From Cytophagales bacterium (GTDB taxonomy: Bacteria; Bacteroidota; Bacteroidia; Cytophagales; Cyclobacteriaceae), in the NCBI GenBank assembly GCA_022360055.1, contig JAKSDO010000224.1, forward strand, positions 1 through 33,977: a stretch of 33,977 bases of DNA, in the 5' to 3' direction. A model generated the notes under the pieces. The model worked only from the letters and a program-made list of their open reading frames with translations. It made no database searches and was not told the DNA's origin. Within the stretch, counting starts at the first letter, position 1; each line of letters opens with the position of its first letter. The translations under genes were made by a program, and so were the position numbers. Positions 6,978 to 33,490 of this stretch are shown here, one piece after another.

Positions 6978-7110
6978 TATCGAAATAATCGATCCGGTCG
7001 GGTAGGTGTAAAAAAGCTCATGGCAAGTACTCAACGTGGCATACTTTGAGTTTTCTGCAAATGACTCCCGGCGTTTTATTTGTAACACCTTTTCAGATAC
7101 CCATTGCTTT

Positions 7111-9483
7111 TCACTCATATCTCAGCGCTTCCACCGGATTTTTACGGGCAGCTCTAATTGTAAAATAACTCACCGTTAGCCATGTCAGTATAAAAATGGC
7201 GATACCGGAAAGGCCAAATATCCACCAGGAAATATTTGTCTTGTAGGCAAAATTATTGCTCCAGTTTTTCAATGCGATCCATCCGACAGGTATGGATATA
7301 AACAAGGCAACCAGCGTGTTGATAACCAGTTCCCGAGACAACAATTCCAGAATGTTACGCATTGATGCTCCGTTTACTTTTCTGATGCCTATTTCTTTAG
7401 TTTTACGCTCAGTTACAAACAGGAACAATCCCAATAACCCGATGCAGGAAAGAATAATCGAAACAATACAAAAAATGATCTCGATCTTCGCTATTTTTTC
7501 TTCGGAATGATATAGATCATTTAGGCTACCATCAAGCAAAGAGCATTGAAATGGTTCATCCGGTCGATATTCTTTCCATATATTTTTAAGGAGACTAAGA
7601 GCTTCATGAATATTATCGGCGTTGGCGCGCACTGAAATCAGATTGTTATAGTTTTGACCCAACTGAATAGCCAGCGGTTCAACATCGTGATGCAGTGATC
7701 GATAATTAAAATCATCGACGACGCCAACAATCTCGCCCCAGGGGGCATTGCATGTTCTGAACTTCCTCCCGATAATATTTTTGTCTCCCATTTTTCTGGC
7801 GAGGGAAGCGTTTACCAAAAAAGCCCTCCCTTCTTTATCCAGAGCGAAATTTTGATCAAATCCACGGCCTTCTACTATCTTGATCGAATAAAAATCAGTA
7901 AAATTATAATCTGTCATCATGTAGGGTGTCACCCAATCTTCTCCTTCCGGCTTGCCTTCAAAGTGGATGCAAGTGCGCCACATCGAATTGCCAAATGGAA
8001 TATTGGTTGAGGTAATGCCGTTGATGGCCATGTGCTTTTTAAGATCGTTTTTTATGGTATGGTAGTGATTGCGAATTTTCTGATTTGACCATATATTGAT
8101 CACTGCTTCGCTGGAATATCCAAGTTCTTTGTTTTTCATAAAATGAATCTGCTTGCCTATATAAAGCGCCGAAATGATATGAAGACAGGTAATTGATAAT
8201 TGAACAATAACCAAAATCCGTTTAAAGGCAATCCCCCGGGAACCAACATTGAAATTTTTTTTAAAAAGCGCCACAGGCTTTACCGAACTTAGGATTATGG
8301 CAGGATAAATGCCTGCAAATACACTCAACAAGAGTACAAACCCAAACATAACGGGGTAAAACCAAAACTCGTGATAGATCAAATTTGGTTGATCCAGGAT
8401 GTCGAATTTTCTTAATAAGGAATTGGCAATTTCTACAAAAAGCAGCGACACCCAAAAAGATATAAAAAGCAATAAAAACGCTTCCAGTAAAAACTGAAAA
8501 ATAAGGTTGATTTTGCCTGATCCTACCACTTTTTTCAATCCAAATTCCCTGTATCTCTTCGAGGTGGAAGCAGTAGCCAGATTTACATAATTGATGGTAG
8601 AGATTGCAACGATCAAAATTCCTATTACGATAAACATATATACCAGGGCAATATCCGACTTCTTATGGTTTTGTCCCCAAATGGTATGCCTGGAATAAAG
8701 ATGAAGATCGCTTAACGGTTGAATCAGAAATTCTATCGAAGTTGCGTCTATTTCCATATATTTATTTTTGTGGGCCTGAAGGGCTTGTGTTAATCCTTCC
8801 GGGTCTGTGTTTTGGTCTAATAACAGATAAATACTTGTAGTATGGTTGTAGTTCCTCCTGTTCCAGGAAGCTTTGCGCCCTTCTATGGAGACCAGAATAT
8901 CGGCCTGAAAATGAGAATTGTCGGGGATATCCTCAATTACTGCCGTAACTACATATTCCAATCCATCTTTATGCAAAATCGATTGCCCGACAGGTGATCT
9001 GTCTGCGAATAATCTTTTTGCAAAGGACTCTGAAATGACAGCGCTTTGAGGGTTGGATAATGCATTTTCGGGCGAACCGGCAATAAAGGTAAAGCTGAAT
9101 ATCTTGAAAATACTGTTGTCGGTGAAAGTTACATTTCTGGCTTCAACCCGATTTTCGGCATCACCAAACCACAGATTTCCAACTCCCAACAGACCTGTAG
9201 AGGCTTCTACTCCCTTGATCTCTTCTTCAAAGGTACCTATAAGCCATTCAGGCATGGAAGACAGATATTTTTCGTCCTGTCCTTTGAAATTTTGCTTTTC
9301 AATAAGACGATATATTCTATCTTTATTCTCATGAAATCCATCGAATGAAAACTCAATATACACCCAATTGCCAATGATAATGAGGGATGCAATACCAATA
9401 GATATACCAAAGAAATTGATCAAGGTGATGGCCCTGTTCCGGTAGAATAATCTGAATATGGTTTTTAAGTGGTGTTTTAACAT
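7111..9483 (-). CDS. MacB/FtsX-family ABC transporter permease
   Basis: At 790 residues this is the usual length for Bacteroidota duplicated FtsX permeases. It starts with MLKHHLKTIFRLFYRN and a first membrane helix (about 20-43), then a MacB-type periplasmic domain. Three helices of the first FtsX core lie at about 280-425. A second periplasmic domain follows, then a second FtsX core with TERKTKEIGIRKVNGA and the C-terminal signature ARKNPVEALRYE. These proteins work with a separate MacB-like ATPase in efflux or mechanotransmission across the envelope; no ATPase gene is nearby. It lies 65 nt downstream of the next permease on the same strand and is probably co-transcribed with it. The substrate is unknown. 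Confidence 0.92.
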   Translation of the reverse strand: MLKHHLKTIFRLFYRNRAITLINFFGISIGIASLIIIGNWVYIEFSFDGFHENKDRIYRLIEKQNFKGQDEKYLSSMPEWLIGTFEEEIKGVEASTGLLGVGNLWFGDAENRVEARNVTFTDNSIFKIFSFTFIAGSPENALSNPQSAVISESFAKRLFADRSPVGQSILHKDGLEYVVTAVIEDIPDNSHFQADILVSIEGRKASWNRRNYNHTTSIYLLLDQNTDPEGLTQALQAHKNKYMEIDATSIEFLIQPLSDLHLYSRHTIWGQNHKKSDIALVYMFIVIGILIVAISTINYVNLATASTSKRYREFGLKKVVGSGKINLIFQFLLEAFLLLFISFWVSLLFVEIANSLLRKFDILDQPNLIYHEFWFYPVMFGFVLLLSVFAGIYPAIILSSVKPVALFKKNFNVGSRGIAFKRILVIVQLSITCLHIISALYIGKQIHFMKNKELGYSSEAVINIWSNQKIRNHYHTIKNDLKKHMAINGITSTNIPFGNSMWRTCIHFEGKPEGEDWVTPYMMTDYNFTDFYSIKIVEGRGFDQNFALDKEGRAFLVNASLARKMGDKNIIGRKFRTCNAPWGEIVGVVDDFNYRSLHHDVEPLAIQLGQNYNNLISVRANADNIHEALSLLKNIWKEYRPDEPFQCSLLDGSLNDLYHSEEKIAKIEIIFCIVSIILSCIGLLGLFLFVTERKTKEIGIRKVNGASMRNILELLSRELVINTLVALFISIPVGWIALKNWSNNFAYKTNISWWIFGLSGIAIFILTWLTVSYFTIRAARKNPVEALRYE

Positions 9484-9548
9484 TACTGTTTATAGTTTTT
9501 GCTTTTTAGCTTCTATTTCCAGCCTTTCATCTATCATCTTTACCGATC

Positions 9549-11903
9549 TCATTCATATCGAAGCGCTTCAACAGGATTTTTTCTTGCGGCCGTCCAGCTC
9601 TGCCAGCTTACGGTCAAAAGGGCGATAAACAAAGCAATCCCTCCTCCAAGGAGAAATATCCACCAACGGATCTCGGTTTTGTAGGCGTAGTTCCCGAGCC
9701 ATTTATTCATGGCATACCAGGCTATGGGGGTGGCGATTATGAAGGCTACACATACCCATCGAATGAAATCCTTGTTAAGGAGCAATAATACATCTTCGAC
9801 GTGAGCTCCATTCACTTTTCTTATTCCAATTTCTTTAGTGCGCTTTTGACTTGCAAATAAGGAAAGCGCTAGGATGCCAAGGCAGCTAATGAGGACTGAA
9901 CATCCGGAAAAAGAGGTAAAAGAGCGGCGAAACTGAATTTCCTGCCGGTACATGTTTTCAACCGCCGTATCGAGAAAGCTAACTTCCACAGGAAAATCCG
10001 GGGAAAGCTCAGCGCTTATCTCTTTAATGCTTTCAACCACATCGGACAGCTCTTCAAAATTACCGGAATACGTCTTCACCAAAATATGAGAAACAGCTCC
10101 CCTGTTCAGTATGACAAGCGGGGCGATTGCATAATTTTTGGCCTTGAAATGGAAATCCCGGACCACGCCAATTATTTCAAATCTGTCGTTGATGGAGGCT
10201 CCGATGGGATTTTTGATTTCATGTTTTTTTACAAAAGATTCATTGACAAGGACTTTATTTCTATCCGTTTCGATTTTATTCGAAAAATTCCTGCCCGAGA
10301 TCAATTCGAGTCCGATCATATCCTTGAAATTCGCATCTCCGTCAATCACAGTAAATTGTATATACTTTTCCCCGCCTTCCGTCATTAGGTGGGCTCCCCA
10401 TTGCGAACAAGGTTTCGTGGGATAAAATGTGGTTAAGGATATTGTTTCGATGTGCGATTGATTGAGCAACCTTTCCTTGAGTACCTCATTGTTTAACTGA
10501 GCAGTTTGTTCGATGGCAATGATATTCTCATTTTCAAAGCCAAGGTCCTTGCCGCCAAATTTGATTTGCTTATTTATTAGAATCGTGAATGATATTAATG
10601 AAATGGTGGCGCAAAATTGAATTACGACAAGTGCGCCCTGAAAGAGATTGCCCTTATTGTTTGCCGACCTTTTTCTTACGCTATTAATCGGTAAAGTTGA
10701 AGCTGTTTTAATGGCATTCATCAAATTTGAAACGATTCCAACGGAAGTGACCAGCCCGATCGAAATGGCGATGAATCCGGGAGCCAGAAGGATTTCTTCG
10801 GAATACGCCAGACCTGTAAATCGTTGCACGGAAGGTCTTAATACTTCGGCAAGAATAATGGCAAGCCATCCTACCCCGACAAAAGTAATCACCGCTTCCA
10901 GCATGCTGCTTTTAAACAATTGCTTTTGATTCGCCCCAATGATTTTAAACAATCCGGATAGGTGCATTTTATCCTGCAATCCAAAGGAGGATATGTTGAG
11001 ATAGTTGATGATCGCCATAAAGAAAATCAGTACGGCAACCATGGTAAGAATAAGCACTTTTGGTTTATTGCCGATCACCAGAAAATCAAGCCAGGCATTG
11101 TCAATATTTGAAAAATATACATCCCTTACAGGGATCAACCTGATATCCGGAGCTAATTCATCTTCCGTACTTTTATGAGCATCAAATATTGCTTCAATAG
11201 ATAACTCGGCATTTTCTACCGTTGCTTCATTCCTTAAATGTACAAATGTCATAAACAGCCAGTTGGTCCAGGTATTGAAGTCGTTATCAATCAAAGGAAT
11301 CTTTGGAATGGCGGAAACGGGCAGTAGAATTTCAAAATCCAGGAATGAATTGTATTTCATTGCCGAGATGACTGCCGTTACTTTCACATGGTATTGATTG
11401 TTGAGGATGATATGTTGTCCCACAACATCCGTAGATCCGAATAACCTGGTGGCTTCCTCTTCGGATAGGACCGCAGAAAACGGATCTGCAAGTGCTGAAC
11501 CCAATTCTCCCGCGACAACCGTATAGCTGAACATATCAAAAAATCCGTTGTCGGCGTACATCAGGTTTGTTTCGAAGCTTTCGCCATTTTGTGTTTTTAC
11601 TACCGGAGGGCTCCAGGTTCCGGCCAGGCGAACTACATTTTGTATTTCCGGAATTTCAGTCATTAAATGGTCGGCAAGTATGCCTGGAGTTACGATTTCA
11701 TTTTCATTCAAATCATGACTGCTGCCAACCAGGAATTTTTGCTTTGCATCGGCATGGTAGAGATCGGTAGTCAACTCACTGTAACAGTAGGCAGCAAGCA
11801 TGAGTACGACAGCCATACTGAGCGTCAGCCCGCCAACATTGATTACGTTGACGGTAAAGTTCTTCCTGAAATTTCTGTAAAAAAGTTTTATTGTGTATTT
11901 CAT
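9549..11903 (-). CDS. MacB/FtsX-family ABC transporter permease (paralogue)
   Basis: This 784-residue protein has the same architecture as its downstream neighbour: first helix at about 21-43, periplasmic MacB-type domain, FtsX core at about 290-430, second periplasmic domain and terminal FtsX core. The shared signature KRTKEIGIRKVNGA and the end ARKNPVEALRYE identify it as a paralogue. The two proteins are diverged along most of their length, so the duplication is old. It is likely first in a two-gene operon. A remnant of a third paralogue lies just upstream, so the locus once held three permeases. The ATPase partner must be encoded elsewhere. Confidence 0.92.
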   Translation of the reverse strand: MKYTIKLFYRNFRKNFTVNVINVGGLTLSMAVVLMLAAYCYSELTTDLYHADAKQKFLVGSSHDLNENEIVTPGILADHLMTEIPEIQNVVRLAGTWSPPVVKTQNGESFETNLMYADNGFFDMFSYTVVAGELGSALADPFSAVLSEEEATRLFGSTDVVGQHIILNNQYHVKVTAVISAMKYNSFLDFEILLPVSAIPKIPLIDNDFNTWTNWLFMTFVHLRNEATVENAELSIEAIFDAHKSTEDELAPDIRLIPVRDVYFSNIDNAWLDFLVIGNKPKVLILTMVAVLIFFMAIINYLNISSFGLQDKMHLSGLFKIIGANQKQLFKSSMLEAVITFVGVGWLAIILAEVLRPSVQRFTGLAYSEEILLAPGFIAISIGLVTSVGIVSNLMNAIKTASTLPINSVRKRSANNKGNLFQGALVVIQFCATISLISFTILINKQIKFGGKDLGFENENIIAIEQTAQLNNEVLKERLLNQSHIETISLTTFYPTKPCSQWGAHLMTEGGEKYIQFTVIDGDANFKDMIGLELISGRNFSNKIETDRNKVLVNESFVKKHEIKNPIGASINDRFEIIGVVRDFHFKAKNYAIAPLVILNRGAVSHILVKTYSGNFEELSDVVESIKEISAELSPDFPVEVSFLDTAVENMYRQEIQFRRSFTSFSGCSVLISCLGILALSLFASQKRTKEIGIRKVNGAHVEDVLLLLNKDFIRWVCVAFIIATPIAWYAMNKWLGNYAYKTEIRWWIFLLGGGIALFIALLTVSWQSWTAARKNPVEALRYE

Positions 11904-12050
11904 AATTTGGCTTTCACTTCTTTTTACTCAGTGCCTGTAAGCAAACTTAAAGACACTACTTAAGTGTATCATTTATTGCAATTGCTGCTCGGCGTTTTAT
12001 GTGGATAATTCTTAGCCTATTCGGAGCTTCACAACTCATAAATTATATTT

Positions 12051-12294
12051 CTATTCATACCTCAGCGCCTCCACCGGATTTCTCGACGCCATCCTGACCG
12101 TGTGCCAGCCGACGGGTGCGAGCGCTACTGTAATTGTAATTAATCCCGCGAGGACAAAATTCCGCCAATTTAATCCACATCGGGATTATTATTGCACGGA
12201 CACATCCTGTGGAACGGCCAAAGGTATTAAGATAGGAGGTTAAGTCTTTCTTTAAGCGTTTGCTGAAAAATATCTTCAGATAATGCCCGAACAT
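12051..12294 (-). pseudogene. internally deleted remnant of a third MacB/FtsX permease
   Basis: Reading the minus strand from the ATG at 12294, the first 30 codons (MFGHYLKIFFSKRLKKDLTS, then YLNTFGRSTG) resemble the N-terminus of these permeases. In another frame, the 3' part down to the TAG at 12051-12053 encodes APVGWHTVRMASRNPVEALR followed by YE, the conserved C-terminus. Both ends of a ~790-residue protein are therefore present, joined after loss of more than 2 kb and a frame change. The C-terminal match is firm; the N-terminal one is weaker but positionally convincing. It sits immediately upstream of two intact paralogues in the same orientation. Confidence 0.75.
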
Positions 12295-16571: not shown

Positions 16572-16758
16572 AAGATTATCGCCACACCCTCTTTGGGTTT
16601 CATAAACAAACGGATGCTTATGTCCAATTTTAGAGTGTTTTGTGCCTTATCGGCCCGGAGGGCGAGAAATACCGTGAATTTCCCGGATTAACATAGATCA
16701 ATGTAATTCTCTTACACAGCCGGTTTATTTGTATATTATTTACTAAATCGACAAAAAG

Positions 16759-25195: not shown

Positions 25196-25714
25196 ATGAG
25201 TTTTCCGGATAATTATATCTCAAGCCGACCTCATCGTTTTAAAAGATGGAGTAACAAAGCCTTCGCCGTTTTCAATTCAATAGGCAAGATTGTTCATATT
25301 GGAGTACTTTCAAGGATTGTTCATGGTATATCAACGGTAAAATCCATACTTCTGTGCATTTTGAAGGAACTTTTGGTTCAAATTATGCCGGAGGATGAAC
25401 TTGTCGATAAAGACCTTTTGAAAGGTACACAAGAGATTGAATTAAAACGATACCTGGAGCTTGTATTAAGTACAAACTACATCAAATATTTCCCGGGCGC
25501 GTCGAACGAAACATATTTTATTCTTACGTATATTTTAATTAAAAGGCCTTTTTGGGGCCTTTTTTCATGCGTTTATATTTTTTTAAGTTGCCGACACACA
25601 GAGCAATATAATCATGCTCGTGTGTGTCTTGAATTTGCTCCGGCCACGCCGGTTTCATTTATTCGAATCGATCGCGATCGGATCGATTCGATCTTCCATT
25701 TAATTATTAAATAA
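25196..25714 (+). CDS. small basic leader ORF upstream of a TonB receptor
   Basis: The first ~50 codons (NYISSRPHRFKRWSNKAFAV, FNSIGKIVHIGVLS) closely resemble short leader ORFs that, from memory, precede TonB-dependent receptors in Bacteroidota. The acidic stretch that follows (EDELVDKDLL, QEIELKRYLELVLS) also fits that pattern. Such ORFs are usually about 100 codons. Here the frame has no stop until 25712-25714, so from about codon 115 it runs through an intrinsic terminator and then a dispersed repeat. The last third is unlikely to be ancestral protein. It ends 12 nt before the receptor's ATG. A regulatory leader peptide is the most likely role; no enzyme motif is present. Confidence 0.6.
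   Translation: MSFPDNYISSRPHRFKRWSNKAFAVFNSIGKIVHIGVLSRIVHGISTVKSILLCILKELLVQIMPEDELVDKDLLKGTQEIELKRYLELVLSTNYIKYFPGASNETYFILTYILIKRPFWGLFSCVYIFLSCRHTEQYNHARVCLEFAPATPVSFIRIDRDRIDSIFHLIIK
25541..25565 (+). terminator. intrinsic terminator inside the leader ORF
   Basis: AAAAGGCC (25541-25548), loop TTTTTGG and GGCCTTTT (25556-25563) form a perfect 8-bp stem followed by T to 25565. It lies between the leader promoter and the TonB receptor, in the open frame of the leader, so translation through it would unfold the hairpin. Confidence 0.8.
25561..25660 (+). repeat. dispersed repeat, copy A
   Basis: This 100-nt stretch aligns without gaps to the reverse complement of 33391-33490, with 87 of 100 positions identical by hand count. 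The longest identical core is about 24 nt around ATAATCATGCTCGTGTG (near 25608-25628). It starts in the T-tract of the terminator and ends just before the hairpin at 25664. In this copy, GACACACAGAGCA and TGCTCGTGTGTGTC can form a stem. That stem is less complete in copy B, so conserved RNA structure is not indicated. Confidence 0.85.
25664..25690. promoter_or_regulatory. 10-bp perfect hairpin before the TonB receptor
   Basis: CGAATCGATC (25664-25673) and GATCGATTCG (25681-25690) flank a 7-nt GCGATCG centre. It lies 36 nt before the receptor ATG and directly after repeat copy A. It may be an operator or an mRNA structure affecting translation. No T-tract follows. Confidence 0.55.
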
Positions 25715-25726
25715 ACTTTATAAGTG

Positions 25727-27586
25727 ATGAACCGAAGTCAATTAATTTTTCTTTTTTTTCTTTTGAATTCAATGCGTCTGTTTGCCCAGATCGATACAAC
25801 CATTGTGATGTCCGATTTATTGATCAGCGGCAACAGAATATCAACTCCTTTTTCCGAAGCCTCCCGAAATATTCACATTATCACCAGCGATGAAATAAAA
25901 AGGAAGCCCGTACAAAGTGTGCCGGAGATTTTAACCTATTCGCCCGGGGTAGATATTCGGCAACGTGGGCCGATGGGGGTGCAAGCCGACATAGGAATTC
26001 GTGGAGGGACTTTTGAGCAAACGCTTGTTTTGTTGAACGGAATAAAATTAACCGATCCTCAGACCGGCCACCATATTATGAGTATTCCGATACCAATTGA
26101 TAATATTCACCGGATCGAGGTTTTAAAAGGGCCCGGAGCGAGAATTTTTGGACAGAACGCTTTTGCCGGATCGGTAAATTTTATTACAAAGGCGCCGGAA
26201 ACCGGGAGAATTGGATTTCGCGGATATGGCGGAAGCTTTGGGAGCTGGGGCGGAAATATTTCGATCTCAGTGCCCATTGGGAGTTACAAACAGTTTCTGT
26301 CGTACAATAGAGACGCTTCGGATGGATTTAGACATAATACCGATTACAAACAAAACAATGTATTCTACCAATCCCACGTGGCAACCAAGAATGGAAAATA
26401 TGAGTTGATATTTGGGCTGACCGACAGAAAATTCGGAGCTAACGGATTTTATGCCAGCTCAAAGTTTACCGAGCAATACGAGGAGTTACGGACGAGTATT
26501 ACCAGCATTTCCTATGAAACCCAGAAAAATAATCTTAGAATAAAACCGCGTATATACTGGAGATGGAACAGAGATAAGTATTTATTTATCAGAGAAAATC
26601 CTTCTGCTTACCAAAATCTTCATAAGACAAATACTTATGGGGCCGAAATAAACGCTTCCTATCGAAGTAGTATTGGAACTACAGGGTTTGGAGTTGAGTA
26701 TCGAAAAGAAGAGATTACGGGAGATTGGGTAAGAGGAGGCAATGAGAGCAAAAGCAATCTTCATGGGTTTGGCCGGGATAATTTCGGTTTTTATGCAGAT
26801 CATAAATTCAAGATTGGGAATAAATTTGATTTTACTCCCGGAATATATGTGAATTGGTATTCAGATTTTGGCTGGAATGCATTTCCGGGGATGGACCTTG
26901 GGTACAATTTAAATGACAAAATCAGAATTTATGGAAACGTAGGGAAATCATATCGAATACCTACGTTTTATGATCAATACTACAGCAGTCCGGTTGAAGA
27001 AGGGAATCCAAATTTAAAACCGGAAGAGGCCGTGACCTATGAATTAGGATTGCGATACATCCAAAATGGACTCACTTTGGACGTAAATTATTTTCAACGC
27101 GACGCCAGTCAATTGATCGATTGGGTTTTAAATCCGGTCGATAGTATTTGGAGGTCGCAAAACTTTCAGAATATTACGACTAATGGGATCGAATTTGTTG
27201 CAAATCTTGATTTCTTAAAATTAGTGGGATCGAATTTTCCAATAATCAATGCTACGCTGAGCTATAATTATCTGGATCAAAATTTAAGTGCGCAAGAAAA
27301 TGCTCAATCGCGATATGCGCTGGAACATATAACCAATCAAATCATCTTTGGCCTTGAGCACAGAATAATAGGTAAATTGAAAAATAGCTTCAAAATGAGG
27401 TATATCGATCGGTTCGAGCAGGATCCGTATTTGTTGATTGATGACCGAATGTACTATGAAATCAATGAACAGGCAAGCGTATTTGTTGAGGCTGCAAACC
27501 TGACCGGTCAGACATATACCGAAGTAATGACTCCAATGCCGGGAAGGTGGTTCAGGGCTGGGGTCCACATTAACATTGGATTATGA
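25727..27586 (+). CDS. TonB-dependent outer-membrane receptor (BtuB-like)
   Basis: A GTG at 25724 precedes the ATG at 25727; I use the ATG, giving a 619-residue product with a signal peptide (about 1-20, ending RLFAQ). The plug domain is clear (about 45-155): PEILTYSPGVDIRQRG, ADIGIRGGTFEQTLVLLNGI, IEVLKGPGARIFGQNAFAGS. It leads into a 22-strand-type barrel with NPNLKPEEAVTYELGLRY and a final strand ending in HINIGL. The length and plug are of the BtuB or siderophore-receptor type rather than SusC. The ligand (cobalamin, iron chelate or other) cannot be decided, and no cobalamin riboswitch was recognised. No SusD or transporter gene is adjacent. Confidence 0.9.
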   Translation: MNRSQLIFLFFLLNSMRLFAQIDTTIVMSDLLISGNRISTPFSEASRNIHIITSDEIKRKPVQSVPEILTYSPGVDIRQRGPMGVQADIGIRGGTFEQTLVLLNGIKLTDPQTGHHIMSIPIPIDNIHRIEVLKGPGARIFGQNAFAGSVNFITKAPETGRIGFRGYGGSFGSWGGNISISVPIGSYKQFLSYNRDASDGFRHNTDYKQNNVFYQSHVATKNGKYELIFGLTDRKFGANGFYASSKFTEQYEELRTSITSISYETQKNNLRIKPRIYWRWNRDKYLFIRENPSAYQNLHKTNTYGAEINASYRSSIGTTGFGVEYRKEEITGDWVRGGNESKSNLHGFGRDNFGFYADHKFKIGNKFDFTPGIYVNWYSDFGWNAFPGMDLGYNLNDKIRIYGNVGKSYRIPTFYDQYYSSPVEEGNPNLKPEEAVTYELGLRYIQNGLTLDVNYFQRDASQLIDWVLNPVDSIWRSQNFQNITTNGIEFVANLDFLKLVGSNFPIINATLSYNYLDQNLSAQENAQSRYALEHITNQIIFGLEHRIIGKLKNSFKMRYIDRFEQDPYLLIDDRMYYEINEQASVFVEAANLTGQTYTEVMTPMPGRWFRAGVHINIGL

Positions 27587-27962
27587 AATCTGAACATTAA
27601 TTCATAATTCACGTTGATAATAGTCTGGTTTTTCAGTTTTTTCCTCCGGAAGATCCGAGGACAAAGATTGAGGAATTAATCCAATTAAATAATAAAATTG
27701 CATCTATTCGCTGTAAAAACTAAGACCAATTGACAAATTGACAAAAAATCTGAGATTTATTGCAGTAATTGCATAAATAGGACATTGCTAAGAATAAATT
27801 TAACAAAAATAATTTTGTGGGGATCGATAAAAAAATAGTTAAATCATTTGAATATAAATATTTTTAGTTAATTTTACACTTATCTAAGTCTGGGCATTTC
27901 AATTTATTGGAAAGAGGATCTTAGATTTATTGCGAATTAACGATCGAATTATTATTTTTATT
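27587..27962. other. AT-rich intergenic region before the polysaccharide locus
   Basis: About 375 nt, very AT-rich, with no credible gene. It separates the TonB receptor from the polysaccharide operon and should contain that operon's promoter. The best candidate is listed separately at 27810. A TTG-initiated extension of the receiver frame (27930) is possible but not preferred. Confidence 0.5.
27810..27817 (+). promoter_or_regulatory. candidate -7 element of the polysaccharide operon
   Basis: TAATTTTG fits TAnnTTTG. The nearest TTG (27785-27787) is 22 nt upstream, slightly far. The leader would be about 145 nt before the receiver ATG. Confidence 0.35.
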
Positions 27963-28361
27963 ATGGCACATAAGCATCACATACTTATAATTGATGATGA
28001 TTTGGCGATGTGCCAGTTGTTGCAAAGATTATTTGAGGATGCTTATACCGTTACAACCAAAAATGATGGCATGTCGGCAATGTATTGGCTAGCGCAGGGG
28101 AATCTTCCCGATTTGATTATCACAGATCTTGATATGCCAAATATAAACGGTGAGGAATTTGTAAGTAACCTTAAAAATAGTGGATACTTCAATGAAGTGC
28201 CGTTCATTGTAATCACAGGATATTCCGGAAAAGAGCAGCGGCTTAAATGCATGAAGCTTGGTGTTCACGATTATTTTGAAAAGCCCTTTAATCCAAAAGA
28301 CCTGGTTTTTTCTGCTGAAGTAGTATTAAAACACAGTTTGAAGAAGTTTAGCATCCTATGA
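27963..28361 (+). CDS. single-domain response regulator (receiver only)
   Basis: The product is 132 residues and contains only a CheY-like receiver: acidic pair Asp11/Asp12 in IIDDDLAMC, phosphoacceptor Asp55 in IITDLDMPNING, Thr85 in VITGYSG and Lys107 in YFEKPF. All key residues are present, so it should accept phosphate. There is no output domain. The ATG at 27963 is preferred over an upstream TTG. Its stop overlaps the start of the next gene by 4 nt (ATGA), implying translational coupling. A partner histidine kinase is not in the window. It probably acts on the sugar transferase or another polysaccharide component by protein contact. Confidence 0.9.
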   Translation: MAHKHHILIIDDDLAMCQLLQRLFEDAYTVTTKNDGMSAMYWLAQGNLPDLIITDLDMPNINGEEFVSNLKNSGYFNEVPFIVITGYSGKEQRLKCMKLGVHDYFEKPFNPKDLVFSAEVVLKHSLKKFSIL

Positions 28362-29485
28362 TCAAGAATACATCCAGACAACCCACTCCATCCGTAGATT
28401 TTAATGCTCGGGATTCCAAAGGCGTAGAGCAGCAACTTATTCTTTTTGTCGGTTCAAACGCCGTTGAAATTTGCAGTGCGCTATTGGACTATAACTATAC
28501 CGGCCTGTCTCTGCCGAGTTTTTCCAGGGCGGAGCTATGGCTTAAAAATCAGATTCTTTCAAAATCCAAATTGCCCGTAGCTATCATTTCGGACTTTGCG
28601 TTGCATGACGGTAATGTATTTTCTTTTCATTACGGACTTAGATTAAATGAAAGGTTAAAAGCCATTCCTTTGATTGTAATTGCCAGAAACAGACCAAGAG
28701 AAGATAAAATCAAGGCTTTGAAAGTCGGAATAGACGACTTTTATATCGGTCGGCTGGATGCGGAGCAGATACATAAAAGGATTCAATTTTTATTTAAATT
28801 CAAAAAACTTACCTCCAAGCTCGAAGTTGAGCCTGAAGTAAATTTGAATCATTTTTTGCCCTTATTTAAAATGCCAATGCTAAAAAGGTGTTTTGATATT
28901 ATCTTTTCATCACTTGCTTTGATCGTATTGAGCCCATTGTTTTTATTAATAGCACTACTGATAAAAGCGGAATCCAGAGGTCCGGTTTTTTACATTTCAT
29001 TAAGGGCCGGTTCCGGCTATAAAATATTTAATTTTTATAAGTTCAGGACCATGAAATTGAATGCGGATAAAGAGTTGGATAGCATTATTCATTTAAATCA
29101 ATATAAGAATGAATTCGGGACTTCATTCTTTAAGTTTGACAAAGATCCGCGGGTTACCCGGGTTGGGGGATTCCTGAGAAAGTTTAGTTTGGATGAATTG
29201 CCGCAACTAATAAACGTATTGCTCGGTGATATGTCTCTGGTAGGTAATCGGCCTTTACCTTTATATGAGGCTGAAAAACTGACTAAAGATCAATTTGCAA
29301 AAAGGTTTTTAGCACCTGCCGGTATTACCGGTCTTTGGCAAGTGTCGAAGAGAAGATTATCACAACTGTCCGAGGAAGAGCGAATGAATTTGGATATCAC
29401 CTATGCCGATCGCTGTTCTTTTCTTTTTGATTTGAAAATATTGTTCAAGACGTTTCCTGTTGTTTTCCATCATGCAGTTCTGTAA
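28358..29485 (+). CDS. phosphoglycosyl transferase with an N-terminal degenerate receiver domain
   Basis: The 375-residue protein has two parts. Residues 25-148 fold like a receiver: Asp79 in [11 protein letters not shown] sits at the phosphoacceptor place. The N-terminal acidic pair is missing (FVGSNAVE), and the usual Lys is replaced (FYIGRL), so it is a pseudo-receiver. Residues 175-375 are a bacterial sugar transferase: membrane helix 178-203, [13 protein letters not shown], the [20 protein letters not shown] catalytic block with Asp279/Glu280, and [11 protein letters not shown]. Such enzymes transfer a sugar phosphate from a nucleotide sugar to undecaprenyl phosphate, starting a polysaccharide repeat unit. 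It overlaps the preceding receiver gene by 4 nt and the next glycosyltransferase by 1 nt. Confidence 0.9.
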
Positions 29486-30693
29486 TGCTGAATCAGTTTT
29501 TTCGGACGTTGATGTTCATATTTGAGATATCCGTTTTCGGATATTTTTTTTATGTGTCCTTGTACAATTTTATCCTTTCCTTTTTTGGGGTTTTCCGATC
29601 AAACGAAATAGGAAGTGCTAAGAACCCTTTGCAAAGGATTGTCGTATTGATACCGGCCTATAAAGAGGACCATGTTATTCTAAATACGGTACGCGAATTT
29701 CTAAAAGTGAATTACCCTAAAGACTTGCTGGAAATTATTGTAATAGCCGATTCATTTAAGGATAAGACGTTGGAAATTTTGAGAAACTACCCTGTGATTG
29801 TCCACGAGGTTTATTTCAGCGAGCGTACGAAAGTCAAAGCGATTAAATCTGCCCTGGGTAAAATCGGATGCGATAAGGATATTATGGTGATTATCGATGC
29901 CGACAATATAGTTGAAAAAGATTTTTTAATGAGCGTTAGTCAAATCGTCTCAAACGGAAATAAGCTCATTCAGGGGAAGCGAATAATTAAAAATCCGGGG
30001 AATGATCTGGCGCATCTGGATGATCTGAGCGAGCAGATAAATAATCATATAAATCGAAAAGGTGTCTGTAACATGGGCGGTTCTTCTTCCGTTGCGGGTT
30101 CCGGTTTTGCAGTGGAATATTGTTTGGGGAAAGAGATATTCTTCAAATTAGACTCTGTTGGAGGATTTGACAAGGAATTTGAAATTCTGGCGTTGAAAAA
30201 GGGCGTTAAGACTAAATTTGTAGAAGATATTTTGATTTATGATGAAAAGGTTGAGACGAAAGGTGTTTTTAAAAATCAAAGAAAACGATGGGTTGCAAGT
30301 CAATACGCATTCCTTTTAAAGTATTTCAAGTATGGAATTAAAGCTCTGGGCAAACGTGATTTTGCGTCGTTCAACAGCTCCATCTTGAGAAATATCCAAT
30401 TTCCCCGAGTATTGAATCTGGGTATATTTTCATTTTTAATCGTACTGACCGGTATATTTAAAGGCGGTTTATCGATTCCTTACCTGGTATGGATTATCTT
30501 TTACATTTTATTTCTTTTGTCCATATTAATTGCCGTTCCTAAAAGATTTTATAATTTTAGTACCGTTCTAAGTTTTATTCGACTGCCCGGTATTTTTTTT
30601 ACAATGCTTGCGATCATGTTCAAACTCAAGGGAGCAAACAGGGTATTTCTGCATACTCCGCATCATTCAAATCTATCAAAGAATGATGAATGA
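29485..30693 (+). CDS. membrane-bound family 2 glycosyltransferase
   Basis: The 402-residue product has an N-terminal helix (about 10-35), then a GT2 domain: RIVVLIPAYKED (51-62), Asp89 in IIVIADSFKDKT, the DAD triad (138-140), then FKNQRKRWVASQ with the QRxRW-type acceptor motif. Two or three helices follow near the C-terminus. This is the layout of processive or membrane GT2 enzymes such as hyaluronan- or cellulose-type synthases, but the sugar is unknown. Its ATG shares the A of the previous TAA (TAATG), so it is translationally coupled. The following gene starts inside its last codons. Confidence 0.88.
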   Translation: MLNQFFRTLMFIFEISVFGYFFYVSLYNFILSFFGVFRSNEIGSAKNPLQRIVVLIPAYKEDHVILNTVREFLKVNYPKDLLEIIVIADSFKDKTLEILRNYPVIVHEVYFSERTKVKAIKSALGKIGCDKDIMVIIDADNIVEKDFLMSVSQIVSNGNKLIQGKRIIKNPGNDLAHLDDLSEQINNHINRKGVCNMGGSSSVAGSGFAVEYCLGKEIFFKLDSVGGFDKEFEILALKKGVKTKFVEDILIYDEKVETKGVFKNQRKRWVASQYAFLLKYFKYGIKALGKRDFASFNSSILRNIQFPRVLNLGIFSFLIVLTGIFKGGLSIPYLVWIIFYILFLLSILIAVPKRFYNFSTVLSFIRLPGIFFTMLAIMFKLKGANRVFLHTPHHSNLSKNDE

Positions 30694-31588
30694 AGCGCCG
30701 TTAGTATCCATCATCACAATCAATTTCAACAATTTAAAAGTAACACTTGAGTTGTTGCTTTCTATCGAGGAATGTACCTACCAAAATCTTCAGGTCATCG
30801 TTGTAGACAATGGCTCTGAAAGGGATCCGACAGATGAGATAAAAAGAAAATTCGCAGAGGTGACGGTCATCAGATCCGAAAAGAATCTGGGCTTTTCAGC
30901 CGGGAATAACCTTGGCAGTAAATATGCTAAAGGCGAATTCATATTTTTTGTTAACAATGATACGCTATTTGCTGAAAATGTGATTGAGCGGTTGCTGGAT
31001 CCTTTTAGAGAAATTGAGAATTTGGCTATAGTTTCTCCGAAAGTGATCTATTATGAATCTCCAAACATTATTCAATATGCGGGAAGTACTGAGATCAATG
31101 CTTTGACCGGTCGAAATAAAGTTGTGGGACAAGGCGAGGTAGACAACGATGAATTATATAAATCCGGAGAAACATTTTTTGCCCATGGGGCTGCCATGAT
31201 CATAAAAAAAGATATGCTCCAATTAATTGGAGGGTTTCCTGAGATATATTTTCTCTATTACGAGGAGATGGATTATTCGTACAGAATCCGGAGATCAGGT
31301 TATCGGATTTATTATTATAATAAGGCTGTAATTTATCATCGCGTTTCGTATTCGACCGGAGAGGATAGTCCTTTAAAAACCTATTATATGACTCGGAATC
31401 GAATAATGTTTATGCAAAGGAATTTTAATGGTTTTCAGTTTACTGTTTTTATTTTATTTTTTGTTTTCTTTACTATACCTAAAAATAGTCTTAGGTATTT
31501 GATGCATATGCGATACGATCTTCTGAAAGCATTTTTTAATGCAATAAAATGGAATTTAGTTACATCCAGAAAGATTAAACTGAATTGA
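30683..31588 (+). CDS. family 2 glycosyltransferase (rhamnosyltransferase-like)
   Basis: An ATG at 30608 in the same frame would add 25 codons deep inside the previous gene. The ATG at 30683, giving MMNEAPLVSIITINFNN, is the natural GT2 start and overlaps the previous gene by 11 nt. The 301-residue protein has VVDNGS, a DxD-like FFVNNDTLF, and EEMDYSYRIRRSGYRIYYY, which fit the GT2 family of cytoplasmic rhamnosyl-type transferases. A hydrophobic stretch near the C-terminus may bind the membrane. It adds a sugar to the lipid-linked repeat unit; the donor is not known. Confidence 0.88.
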   Translation: MMNEAPLVSIITINFNNLKVTLELLLSIEECTYQNLQVIVVDNGSERDPTDEIKRKFAEVTVIRSEKNLGFSAGNNLGSKYAKGEFIFFVNNDTLFAENVIERLLDPFREIENLAIVSPKVIYYESPNIIQYAGSTEINALTGRNKVVGQGEVDNDELYKSGETFFAHGAAMIIKKDMLQLIGGFPEIYFLYYEEMDYSYRIRRSGYRIYYYNKAVIYHRVSYSTGEDSPLKTYYMTRNRIMFMQRNFNGFQFTVFILFFVFFTIPKNSLRYLMHMRYDLLKAFFNAIKWNLVTSRKIKLN

Positions 31589-31712
31589 AAATTCAATGAA
31601 ATTCGTTTTTCGGGTCTGCTAAAATAAATGTACCGGTAATCTGGGTAGATGGTTATTAAGATTGATCTTGTGAATATTCCTCGCTCGAAGTTTCAATTCA
31701 GGCCTGATTCTA

Positions 31713-33080
31713 ATGATTAAAACATCAAAGGAAGTAGTTAAAAGACTCCGAAAATCCTATTGGCTAAAATCGGGGACATTGGTATTATCTACCCGGCTGA
31801 TATTAATGATTATCGGATTCATTACCTTCCTGATACTCATTCGATATTTTGATAAAGAGGAATATGGCATTTGGGTAATCTACATGACAGTCACGAGTTT
31901 AATAGAAACTGTGCGAATTGGATTCCTTAAAAGCCCTTTAATGATATTGAATTCTGATAAAGCCACAAGAAGGGATTTGCTTTATGCGAACTCATTCTTT
32001 CTAAATATTCTCCTATCCTTGCTGTTCATAATTGCCGTTGTATCGTCGATTTCAATTTGGTCGGCATTTGGCAATATAGGGGTAATTAAATACCTGTTTT
32101 TTCTGTATTCGATCAAATTGATCATTGTGTCTGTTTCAGATCATTTCGACCTTATTCAGGAGACTAACCTGGAATTTAAGGGGAGCTTTTTTGATCTTGT
32201 CTCAAGATATTCGGTGTTTGTCTTATTAATTTTTGTGTTTCTCTTTTTTGGAAAAACCATTAGATTGGAATTACTGGTCTTGTTTCAAATTATCGGATCA
32301 GTGGTAGGATTAATTCTTACAAGTTTAAATGCATATCTAAAAGGAATTGTCGCATTACCATCCTTTACCTATAATGCGGTATATCTTAAGAAATATGTGA
32401 AGCTGGGAAAGTATACAATCGGTTCGAGCCTTATCTCGATAGCTTCCAGAAACATCGACACATGGATGTTGGGTTTATTGATGTCACCTGCGGCAATCAC
32501 AATCTATAATCCCGCCCTACGGGTATCAAATATTTTCGAATTGCCTTCGTCGACAGTTGCTTCGGTGGTCATGCCGAAACTGACAAAAGAAATTGGTTTG
32601 GAAGGAATAAGTTATCTAAAAACGTACTATGAACGTTCAATCACTTATGTCCTGATTGTTATGATTCCACTCGTAATTCTCATTTTCATTTTTTCAGATG
32701 AAATAGTTTATCTATTGGCCGGTCCTGGTTTTCAACAATCGGGGGAACTATTGAAGATTACCATTTTTTTTGGGCTTTTGATCCCCTTTAACCGGCAGTT
32801 TAATGTAATTATGGAGTCGGCCCGGAAGCCGGAAACAAGCTTTCTGGTCATGATATTTACCTTAGTAGTGAGTATAATTTCGCATTATATTTTCATACTA
32901 AATTATGGAATTTACGGCGCAGCTATTGGCTCCTTATTCGCCTATTTTTTGGTTTTTATTCTCACACAGGTATACTTGAACCATCATCACGGTATAAGGT
33001 TCTGGGAAATTTACTTGGATGTTGTACCAACATTCTTAAAAATACGAAAGAGATTTATAAGGACTTTTAAGACAAATTGA
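31713..33080 (+). CDS. Wzx-type polysaccharide flippase
   Basis: This 455-residue polytopic protein has about 12 hydrophobic segments and an N-terminal signature typical of polysaccharide/oligosaccharide flippases (LSTRLILMIIGFITFLIL, then RYFDKEEYGIW). It also has a mid-protein SRNIDTWMLGLLMSPAAITI. These proteins flip undecaprenyl-linked repeat units to the periplasm for polymerisation. The starting ATG at 31713 is preceded by 124 nt of non-coding DNA. The gene ends 2 nt before the Nudix pseudogene. No Wzy polymerase is seen in the window. Confidence 0.9.
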   Translation: MIKTSKEVVKRLRKSYWLKSGTLVLSTRLILMIIGFITFLILIRYFDKEEYGIWVIYMTVTSLIETVRIGFLKSPLMILNSDKATRRDLLYANSFFLNILLSLLFIIAVVSSISIWSAFGNIGVIKYLFFLYSIKLIIVSVSDHFDLIQETNLEFKGSFFDLVSRYSVFVLLIFVFLFFGKTIRLELLVLFQIIGSVVGLILTSLNAYLKGIVALPSFTYNAVYLKKYVKLGKYTIGSSLISIASRNIDTWMLGLLMSPAAITIYNPALRVSNIFELPSSTVASVVMPKLTKEIGLEGISYLKTYYERSITYVLIVMIPLVILIFIFSDEIVYLLAGPGFQQSGELLKITIFFGLLIPFNRQFNVIMESARKPETSFLVMIFTLVVSIISHYIFILNYGIYGAAIGSLFAYFLVFILTQVYLNHHHGIRFWEIYLDVVPTFLKIRKRFIRTFKTN

Positions 33081-33081
33081 A

Positions 33082-33392
33082 ATGAAAGTGAAAAAACTCT
33101 CATGCAATGATTATTGTTCCACTTATAGAAAAGTACCGGGATTATGTGTTGATCTGGTTCTGAGAATTGAGGAAAACAGTATAAATGGGATCTTAACCCT
33201 GGAAGAGGATTATATGGCATTTACCAGGAGGCACAATCTTGATGGGAGAATCCATTGCTGAGGCTGCAAAAAGAATTGCTTATGAAGAAGCAGATTTAAG
33301 GATTTTGGTCTTTACGGGGAATCATTGAATTCTCGGATTACACAAATCCCTTCTTTCATGTTGTCAGCTTTGTGCATCAGGTCTATTTATAG
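33082..33392 (+). pseudogene. frameshifted, truncated Nudix hydrolase
   Basis: Three frames together read as one Nudix protein. Frame 1, from the ATG at 33082, gives YRKVPGLCVDLVLRIEENS. Frame 2 gives WHLPGGTILMGESIAEAAKR then IAYEEADL, a recognisable Nudix box (GX5EX7R...EE) with Ile and Asp replacing usual Glu and Gly. Frame 3 gives IIEFSDYTNPFFHVVSFVHQ, ending in TAG at 33390-33392. There are at least two frameshifts, and the C-terminal part expected for this family is missing. The layout resembles Nudix hydrolases of polysaccharide loci, such as GDP-mannose hydrolases. Its end coincides with the edge of repeat copy B. Confidence 0.75.
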
Positions 33393-33490
33393 ATGAAACC
33401 GGTAGGGCCGGAGCAAATTCAGGACACACACGAGCATGATTATATTTCTCTGTTTGTCAGCAATCTAAAAAAATATAAATGGATAAAAAA
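33391..33490 (-). repeat. dispersed repeat, copy B (inverted)
   Basis: The reverse complement aligns without gaps to 25561-25660, with 87 of 100 positions identical by hand count. It begins where the Nudix remnant stops. The identity falls off on both sides, so the unit seems to be about 100 nt here. No flanking target duplication was found by eye, and no transposase is nearby. Confidence 0.85.

What the first reader, a model, noticed from the sequence alone, without database searches (positions are those of the whole stretch)
25561..33490. A ~100-bp dispersed repeat in inverted copies flanks the TonB receptor and polysaccharide genes
25561-25660 and the reverse complement of 33391-33490 match at 87 of 100 positions without a gap. 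The two copies enclose about 7.7 kb containing the TonB receptor and the start of the polysaccharide locus. One copy begins at a terminator, the other where a Nudix gene is cut off. This looks like a mobile or recombinogenic small repeat family rather than chance. Substitutions in the shared open frame are mostly non-synonymous, which argues against a conserved protein.
Basis: seen in the sequence. Interest (0 to 1): 0.75.

Follow-up and report, generated by a model that had tools for sequence, protein, structure and literature searches.

The report
Start-codon-docking mini transposon family
The 100-base repeat is one of more than two hundred copies of a tiny mobile DNA unit that has slipped into this bacterial genome at the six bases ATGAAA, often exactly at a gene's start codon, leaving a start codon behind; relatives elsewhere share their ends with a kind of jumping gene known to be guided by RNA.

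Summary
Confirmed, and larger than claimed. The window copies match at 87/100; their 21-base core has 219 matches at <=3 mismatches in the genome, control 0. The unit is ~90 bp, begins with ATGAAA and is followed by ATGAAA, often the start codon of the next gene (54 of 93 clusters). Same-genus genomes hold empty sites at five of twelve loci tested, so it is a mobile insertion with ATGAAA on both sides. Copies avoid gene interiors (11 of 91 sites against 445 of 616 other ATGAAA). Family B has the same layout and 61 matches; a divergent superfamily occurs in 21 of 59 genomes including this one. In four other genomes an IS110-family gene directly follows such a unit; three elements (1.52-1.54 kb) could be read end to end and have similar ends. 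Best reading: MITE-like relatives of an IS110-type, possibly RNA-guided element inserting at ATGAAA. No IS110 recombinase was found in this genome. Flanking the TonB/polysaccharide genes is incidental: about one copy is expected per window.

The parts
25563..25658 (-). Unit copy 1 (family A), ATGAAA at both ends; its 3' junction ATGAAAAAAGGCCCC runs into a terminator-like hairpin
   Evidence: 60.6 bits, model positions 1-105; this copy was among the 17 sequences of the model
25541..25565 (.). Terminator-like hairpin AAAAGGCCTTTTTGGGGCCTTTTTT; its T-run, read on the minus strand, forms part of the ATGAAA junction of copy 1
   Evidence: inspection of the sequence
33393..33488 (+). Unit copy 2 (family A); left junction ATGAAA, right junction ATAAAA instead of ATGAAA
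   Evidence: 53.1 bits; also a sequence of the model
25724..27586 (+). TonB-dependent receptor between the copies (context only)
   Evidence: Pfam PF00593 1.3e-33, PF07715 8.6e-21
28358..33080 (+). Polysaccharide genes between the copies: sugar transferase, two family-2 glycosyltransferases, flippase (context only)
   Evidence: Pfam PF02397, PF13641, PF00535, PF13440

Best explanation
The repeat is a non-autonomous, MITE-like mobile unit of about 90 bp, present in more than 200 copies. It inserts at the hexamer ATGAAA and leaves ATGAAA on both sides, so an insertion at a start codon leaves the gene a start codon, now preceded by the unit's A-rich right end (AAATATAAACRG). Shown: copy number, borders, insertion against empty sites, avoidance of gene interiors, tandem arrays, a superfamily in relatives. 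Inferred: the units are mobilised in trans by an IS110-type DEDD recombinase, because IS110-family elements in other genomes sit next to units and have similar left ends (in G024 and G302 ATGAAATAYCCATGACGG..GACACACAGGGGSATGATTATAT) and right ends (AAATATAAACAG or a near variant, then ATGAAA). Inferred further: target choice is guided by the conserved noncoding segment 3' of that recombinase gene, a candidate bridge RNA or seekRNA. Insertions inside genes are mostly lost by selection; those at start codons and between genes persist.
For: 219 core matches, control 0. 119 copies in 102 clusters read with flanks (86 single, 15 double, 1 triple). Right junction hexamer ATGAAA in 78 and left in 72 of the 91 clusters with both ends complete. 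Of 93 clusters with real flanks, 55 have a frame open for >=100 codons from the right-hand hexamer, 54 of them with ATG there. Joined flanks of 12 loci align across the junction (>=20 bases each side) in same-genus genomes at 5 loci: mazG-like gene (6 of 6 congeners), hisS (5 of 6), glnB (4 of 6), PPIase (2 of 6), L126 (2 of 6) (alignments). 11 of 91 pre-insertion sites inside genes against 445 of 616 other ATGAAA, p = 1e-28. In 40 loci of 11 other genomes 43 of 44 unit clusters end at an ATG and 27 of 44 are followed by a long frame (the search model includes the terminal ATGAAA, so only the frame count is independent). IS110 link: G024, G302, G190 and G043 each have a unit followed directly by an IS110-type gene on the same strand; PF01548 1.9e-28 and 1.5e-27 for G302 and G190; element lengths 1534, 1538 and 1521 bp with ATGAAA at both ends, the G190 one at the start of a gene that I read as pheT.
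Against: The own genome has no match to PF01548 or PF02371, nor to two IS110 protein queries. Three congeners have PF02371 genes, but the four loci show no unit (one locus is cut by a contig end, and one search printed the flanks of L210 on the wrong strand). Being a 300-contig assembly, the genome may lack repeated IS copies, so absence is weak evidence. No transposition was observed. The more distant IS110 relative in G399 (38% identity) shows no unit. The left block of the G190 element differs from family A and resembles the unit beside it. The right ends of the IS110 elements score weakly with the unit model (14 and 10 bits), and these elements lack a clear TTCCATCTGACC block found in many units, so the units are not simple internal deletions of these particular elements. 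Start codons are not clearly preferred over intergenic ATGAAA (51:29 against 86:85, p = 0.057). Seven of the 12 joined-flank loci gave no alignment with 20 bases on both sides of the junction.
Confidence: 0.7

Rival explanations
1. The units are an older, independent repeat family (REP-like), and the IS110 elements use unit ends as landing sites, as IS621 uses REP elements; some other enzyme moved the units.
For: All four close IS110 copies lie directly 3' of a unit, and in the three complete ones the sequence left of the element is a unit right end, TATAAACAG, TATAAACAC or TATATACAC. IS621 inserting into REP elements is documented (PMC11208160, passages seen).
Against: The IS110 elements carry a unit-like left block and a right end of their own, and unit U1 in G302 shares the left end of the IS110 in the same array. 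A landing inside a unit should leave the unit's middle block on one side; I see none.
Confidence: 0.2
2. The unit is a 5' regulatory element (RNA leader or translation control) kept at many genes, not a mobile element.
For: 54 of 93 clusters end at the ATG of a long frame; the left 54 and right 20 positions are better conserved than the middle, and pair 11-15 of the small hairpin covaries (T-A 61, C-G 32, C-A 13, T-G 5), though relatedness of copies could do the same.
Against: Empty sites in congeners at five loci, unrelated downstream genes, tandem copies, insertions at non-gene ATGAAA such as both window copies, and copy numbers that differ widely between congeners.
Confidence: 0.05
3. REP-type elements moved by a Y1 (RAYT) transposase.
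For: Short hairpin-bearing units in high copy; four Y1_Tnp matches in the own genome.
Against: No unit within about 2 kb of the four Y1 genes (loci L116, L117, L118, L120; L118 is cut by a contig end on one side); the loop of the small hairpin is variable.
Confidence: 0.03

Closest known systems
IS110/IS1111 family insertion sequences with bridge RNA / seekRNA (PMC11208160, PMC11187229)
   Same: The larger elements have PF01548 and PF02371 domains, a specific target and a long noncoding region; its 3' position is the arrangement described for most IS1111 members.
   Different: Target is ATGAAA, often a start codon; the ~90-bp units carry no recombinase, and whether they encode any guide RNA is unknown; units stand in arrays; the own genome showed no recombinase. 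Subterminal inverted repeats were not examined.
Bacterial MITEs
   Same: Short, without a transposase, high copy, ends like those of a larger transposon.
   Different: No terminal inverted repeats; the repeat at the junction is the fixed ATGAAA, not a variable duplication.
REP elements and RAYTs
   Same: Short hairpin-bearing intergenic repeats, sometimes in tandem (recalled).
   Different: Fixed ATGAAA junction, no Y1 gene nearby, ends like those of IS110-type elements.
TAACTGA direct repeats near start codons (PMC4679880, abstract read)
   Same: Repeats next to start codons, also in some Bacteroidetes.
   Different: Heptamers a few nucleotides upstream of start codons, described there as possible binding sites of a regulator, with no transfer mechanism evident.

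Membership tests
IS110/IS1111 insertion sequences (the larger elements in G024, G302, G190) | DEDD_Tnp_IS110 and Transposase_20 domains | tested here: met
   G302 1.9e-28 and 6.3e-17; G190 1.5e-27 and 1e-14. G024 was assigned by inspection of its sequence beside that of G302 and not scanned.
IS110/IS1111 insertion sequences (the larger elements in G024, G302, G190) | Structured noncoding RNA beside the recombinase gene, with loops matching target and donor | tested here: inconclusive
   138-155 nt 3' of the gene is conserved in three elements and folds into hairpins; two conserved ATGAAA stretches lie in it. Only 1 of 34 predicted pairs shows a double change; no Rfam match. Guide pairing was not tested.
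IS110/IS1111 insertion sequences (the larger elements in G024, G302, G190) | Subterminal inverted repeats (IS1111 group) | not tested
   No search for them was made.
Non-autonomous relative of this IS110 group (the ~90-bp units) | Both ends shared with the larger element | tested here: met
   Left block strong for G024 and G302, weak for G190; right end only the last ~15 bases, AAATATAAACAG|ATGAAA and near variants.
Non-autonomous relative of this IS110 group (the ~90-bp units) | Recombinase gene present in the same genome | tested here: not met
   Own genome: PF01548 none, PF02371 none; the assembly has 300 contigs. G024, with at least 68 units, holds such an element, with a stop inside the gene.
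Non-autonomous relative of this IS110 group (the ~90-bp units) | The recombinase moves the unit | not testable with these tools
   Needs a transposition assay.
Classical MITE of a DDE transposon | Terminal inverted repeats | tested here: not met
   Unit starts ATGAAACCGG and ends AAACGG|ATGAAA, not inverted (consensus).
REP/RAYT | Units flank a Y1 transposase gene | tested here: not met
   The four Y1 loci of the own genome with up to 2-kb flanks hold no unit.
Integron attC sites | Integron integrase and cassette arrays | not tested
   Considered only; no integrase search was made.

The most novel reading that the evidence does not exclude
An RNA-guided IS110-type recombinase has ATGAAA, a frequent way for genes to begin in these Bacteroidota, as its programmed target, so its small passengers spread as ready-made 5' leaders in front of hundreds of genes, apparently including essential ones, without destroying them. 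Each insertion puts a common A-rich initiation region before the start codon and so couples unrelated genes through a shared leader.
Probability: 0.35. Interest if true: 0.88.

Novelty: new variant of a known kind. Interest (0 to 1): 0.72.

Why it matters
It would be a non-autonomous family tied to IS110 elements, and a transposon that spares its host by landing on start codons and restoring them. It gives a natural, high-copy test bed for how an IS110 guide RNA sees a six-base target, and for what happens when hundreds of genes receive the same 5' leader in a phylum said to lack Shine-Dalgarno sequences (PMC6847099, abstract). Five paper searches listed no title or abstract start on IS110-derived miniature elements or on insertion at start codons; they cover an open-licence library and only the top 10-15 rows of each were seen. 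In the two main IS110 papers the terms 'MITE' and 'non-autonomous' do not occur in the main text.

Tried and rejected
A conserved small protein: of 74 copies the frame reads into the downstream ATG in 16, not in 42, 16 not scored. Known RNA family: no Rfam match for the window or for six related loci; the unit at relaxed threshold gave one match, a microRNA family at E 3.2, taken as chance. Phages: exact 23-mer absent from viral contigs. A longer parent element in the own genome: a masked all-against-all comparison of 98 fetched sequences showed none around the units; besides family B and repeats elsewhere it showed one 183-nt stretch near two units. RAYT/REP: see membership test. Purely local tandem duplication: 13 within-array pairs have mean distance 0.119 against 0.152 for random pairs, p = 0.066; five are 0.084 or closer and several as distant as random pairs, so both duplication and nested insertion are likely. 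Compensatory change in the large hairpin: not supported, the right arm varies without it. A sequence requirement upstream of the target: left flanks of 79 single units look like 56 other ATGAAA gene starts apart from a mild excess of purine at -1 (58 of 79 against about 27 of 56, p = 0.004, one of many positions looked at). Unit as a Kozak-like leader: the consensus has A at -6 but C at -3, so the A-3 feature of PMC6847099 (abstract read) is not met.

Caveats on counts: one search counted 58 of 96, but its 96 included clusters at contig ends without a true left flank; the recount is 55 of 93, 54 with ATG. One search used 91 of 102 clusters and a crude ORF caller; some of its 11 'inside' cases are probably miscalls (the mazG-like locus L134 is one). 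One search scored at most 68 candidates per genome, so 68 is a lower bound for G000 and G024, and its E-values are rough. The other-genome loci were picked from the best listed matches. Fetched own loci were chosen around family A, so neighbourhood counts for family B are biased.
Full report
OBSERVATION. The two stretches match at 87 of 100 positions and form by far the longest repeat listed in the window (103 nt; next 35 nt). In the own genome (7.55 Mb, 300 contigs; the window is contig C100) a DNA search gave 47 matches with only 40 of 261 candidates scored. A 21-base core pattern gave 108 + 111 matches at up to 3 mismatches and 0 for the reversed control. Two copies per window is near the average density (0.99 expected, P(>=2) = 0.26).

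ANATOMY. I fetched flanks for about half of the copies: 119 copies in 102 clusters (86 single, 15 double, 1 triple). 111 near-complete units were aligned. The consensus is ATGAAACCGGTAGGACCGGAGCAAATTCAGGACACACACGAGCATGATTATATTGCTCTGTGTGTCAGCAACCTAAAAAAATATAAACGG followed by ATGAAA; mean identity to consensus is 0.907, range 0.83-0.98. Positions 1-54 and 77-96 are more conserved than the middle. The small CCGG hairpin often keeps its closing pair through T-A/C-G exchange (61 T-A, 32 C-G, 13 C-A, 5 T-G), though subfamily structure could produce this too. The larger hairpin is not held by compensatory change. Tandem units share one ATGAAA per junction, about 89-90 bp apart.

WHERE IT SITS. In the 91 clusters with both ends complete the right-hand hexamer is ATGAAA in 78 and the left-hand one in 72. 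In 55 of 93 clusters with real flanks a frame of at least 100 codons begins at the right-hand hexamer, in 54 with ATG. By their N-terminal sequences these include genes that I read as hisS, glnB, a peptidyl-prolyl isomerase, rsgA and many secreted proteins; leuB follows a unit at a contig end (labels from inspection, not from a search). Against 616 other ATGAAA hexamers in the same pre-insertion loci, unit sites strongly avoid gene interiors (11 of 91 against 445 of 616, p = 1e-28), while start codons are not clearly preferred over other intergenic ATGAAA (p = 0.057). The simplest reading is insertion at any ATGAAA, followed by selection. Neither window copy stands at the start of a long frame: one abuts a terminator-like hairpin whose T-run forms part of the junction, the other follows a short broken frame and has ATAAAA at its right junction.

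PROOF OF INSERTION. Joined flanks with the unit removed, sent for 12 loci against six same-genus genomes, align across the junction with at least 20 bases on each side at five loci: the mazG-like gene (six genomes), hisS (five), glnB (four), the PPIase (two) and L126 (two). Alignments of the mazG-like and glnB loci show one clean gap of a unit's length. The other seven loci aligned mostly on the gene side or in separate pieces. Not every congener is empty at glnB: in G001 the flanks are 67 bases apart, and the stretch ends AAAATATAGACAG|ATGAAA like a unit's right end, perhaps a decayed unit (inspection). At the mazG-like locus all six congeners have ATGGA where the own genome has ATGAAA, which fits a need for ATGAAA in the target but is one locus.

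SUPERFAMILY. A second family, B (ATGAAACAGGCCATGCCTGAG...TTTTAAACAG|ATGAAA), has the same layout and 61 matches, control 0. A sequence-only model from 17 units found matches at E <= 0.001 in 21 of 59 genomes: all 7 genomes of the genus counting the own (G002 only just, 8.5e-4), others of the family, 1 of 22 at order level. With the 21-mer at <=2 mismatches only 6 of 395 class genomes had any match, the own included, and two of the others (G257, G085) read as chance. In 40 loci from 11 other genomes 43 of 44 unit clusters end at ATG and 27 of 44 are followed by a long frame.

LINK TO IS110. In G024 the only 21-mer match lies in a unit-like stretch that starts 97 bases before a gene of the IS110 family; in G302 three units in a row precede another such gene, whose own left end is unit-like. 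A class-wide protein search (395 genomes, E <= 1e-60) gave four genomes: G302, G190, G043 and the more distant G399. G190 and G043 again show a unit directly 5' of the IS110-type gene; G399 does not. The three elements that can be read end to end are 1534, 1538 and 1521 bp, begin with ATGAAA and a left block that is close to unit left ends in G024 and G302 and less so in G190, and end with TATAATCAG, TATAAACAG or TATATACAG before ATGAAA; the G190 element stands at the start of a gene that I read as pheT. Domains PF01548 and PF02371 are present in G302 and G190. A segment of 138-155 nt between the gene's end and the right end is conserved in all three, folds into hairpins and holds two conserved ATGAAA stretches. 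I take it as a candidate bridge RNA or seekRNA, in the 3' position described for most of the IS1111 group (PMC11187229 section 6; PMC11208160 sections 6 and 12). Guide pairing was not demonstrated.

AGAINST. The own genome shows no IS110 gene by either domain, and the four IS110-type loci of three congeners hold no unit. The recombinase may have been lost, may sit in a missing part of the assembly, or may be another enzyme. The alternative that IS110 merely lands at unit ends remains open, since all four close copies follow a unit. Many units of other genomes carry a middle block TTCCATCTGACC that I do not see clearly in these IS110 elements, and the elements' right ends match the unit model only weakly.

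VERDICT. Mobility and ATGAAA insertion: about 0.97. Mobilisation by an IS110-type recombinase: about 0.7. RNA guidance to ATGAAA: about 0.4. The finding is a new variant of a known kind: miniature, recombinase-less relatives of IS110-type elements that dock at start codons.

Noticed in passing
window 16603-16691; L062 863-950; L123 976-1091; L082 3980-4091: A second, unrelated dispersed repeat (around AAATTCATGGAATTTCTCGCCC and GGGCC), 84-90% alike between loci, one copy between genes in the window.
   Followed up: partly
own genome, 61 matches (e.g. L079, L094, L081): Family B units carry a 22-codon frame ending in TGA shortly before the downstream ATGAAA; several stand next to family A units in the loci fetched, which were chosen around family A.
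   Followed up: partly
L289 (G001:C148:5300-5900), between the two genes at the glnB site: A 67-base stretch ending AAAATATAGACAG|ATGAAA, perhaps a decayed unit inserted independently at the same start codon in a congener.
   Followed up: partly
L054 2166-2348 and L103 2122-2304: A 183-nt stretch, 90% alike, lies about 40-75 bp upstream of a unit at two places.
   Followed up: no
L202 near 11170 and L207 near 2400: The open frame of the IS110-type gene breaks at the same run of A in G302 and G190, as if expression used slippage there, or as decay; G024 has an in-frame stop elsewhere.
   Followed up: no
G302 (L202), G024 (L205) and G190 (L207) IS110 elements: The loop of the second noncoding-RNA hairpin begins with the same 8-10 bases as the element's left-end block (CACACAGG in G024/G302, CACCAACCGT in G190), so the two differ together between elements.
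   Followed up: partly
window 7108-12081: Direct repeats of 32-35 nt, some at about 2.4-kb spacing, across long minus-strand frames suggest tandem paralogous genes.
   Followed up: no
contig ends of the own genome (e.g. C61, C86, C88, C196, C203, C224): Units sit within about 130 bases of these contig ends, so they probably break the assembly and the copy number is a lower bound.
   Followed up: no
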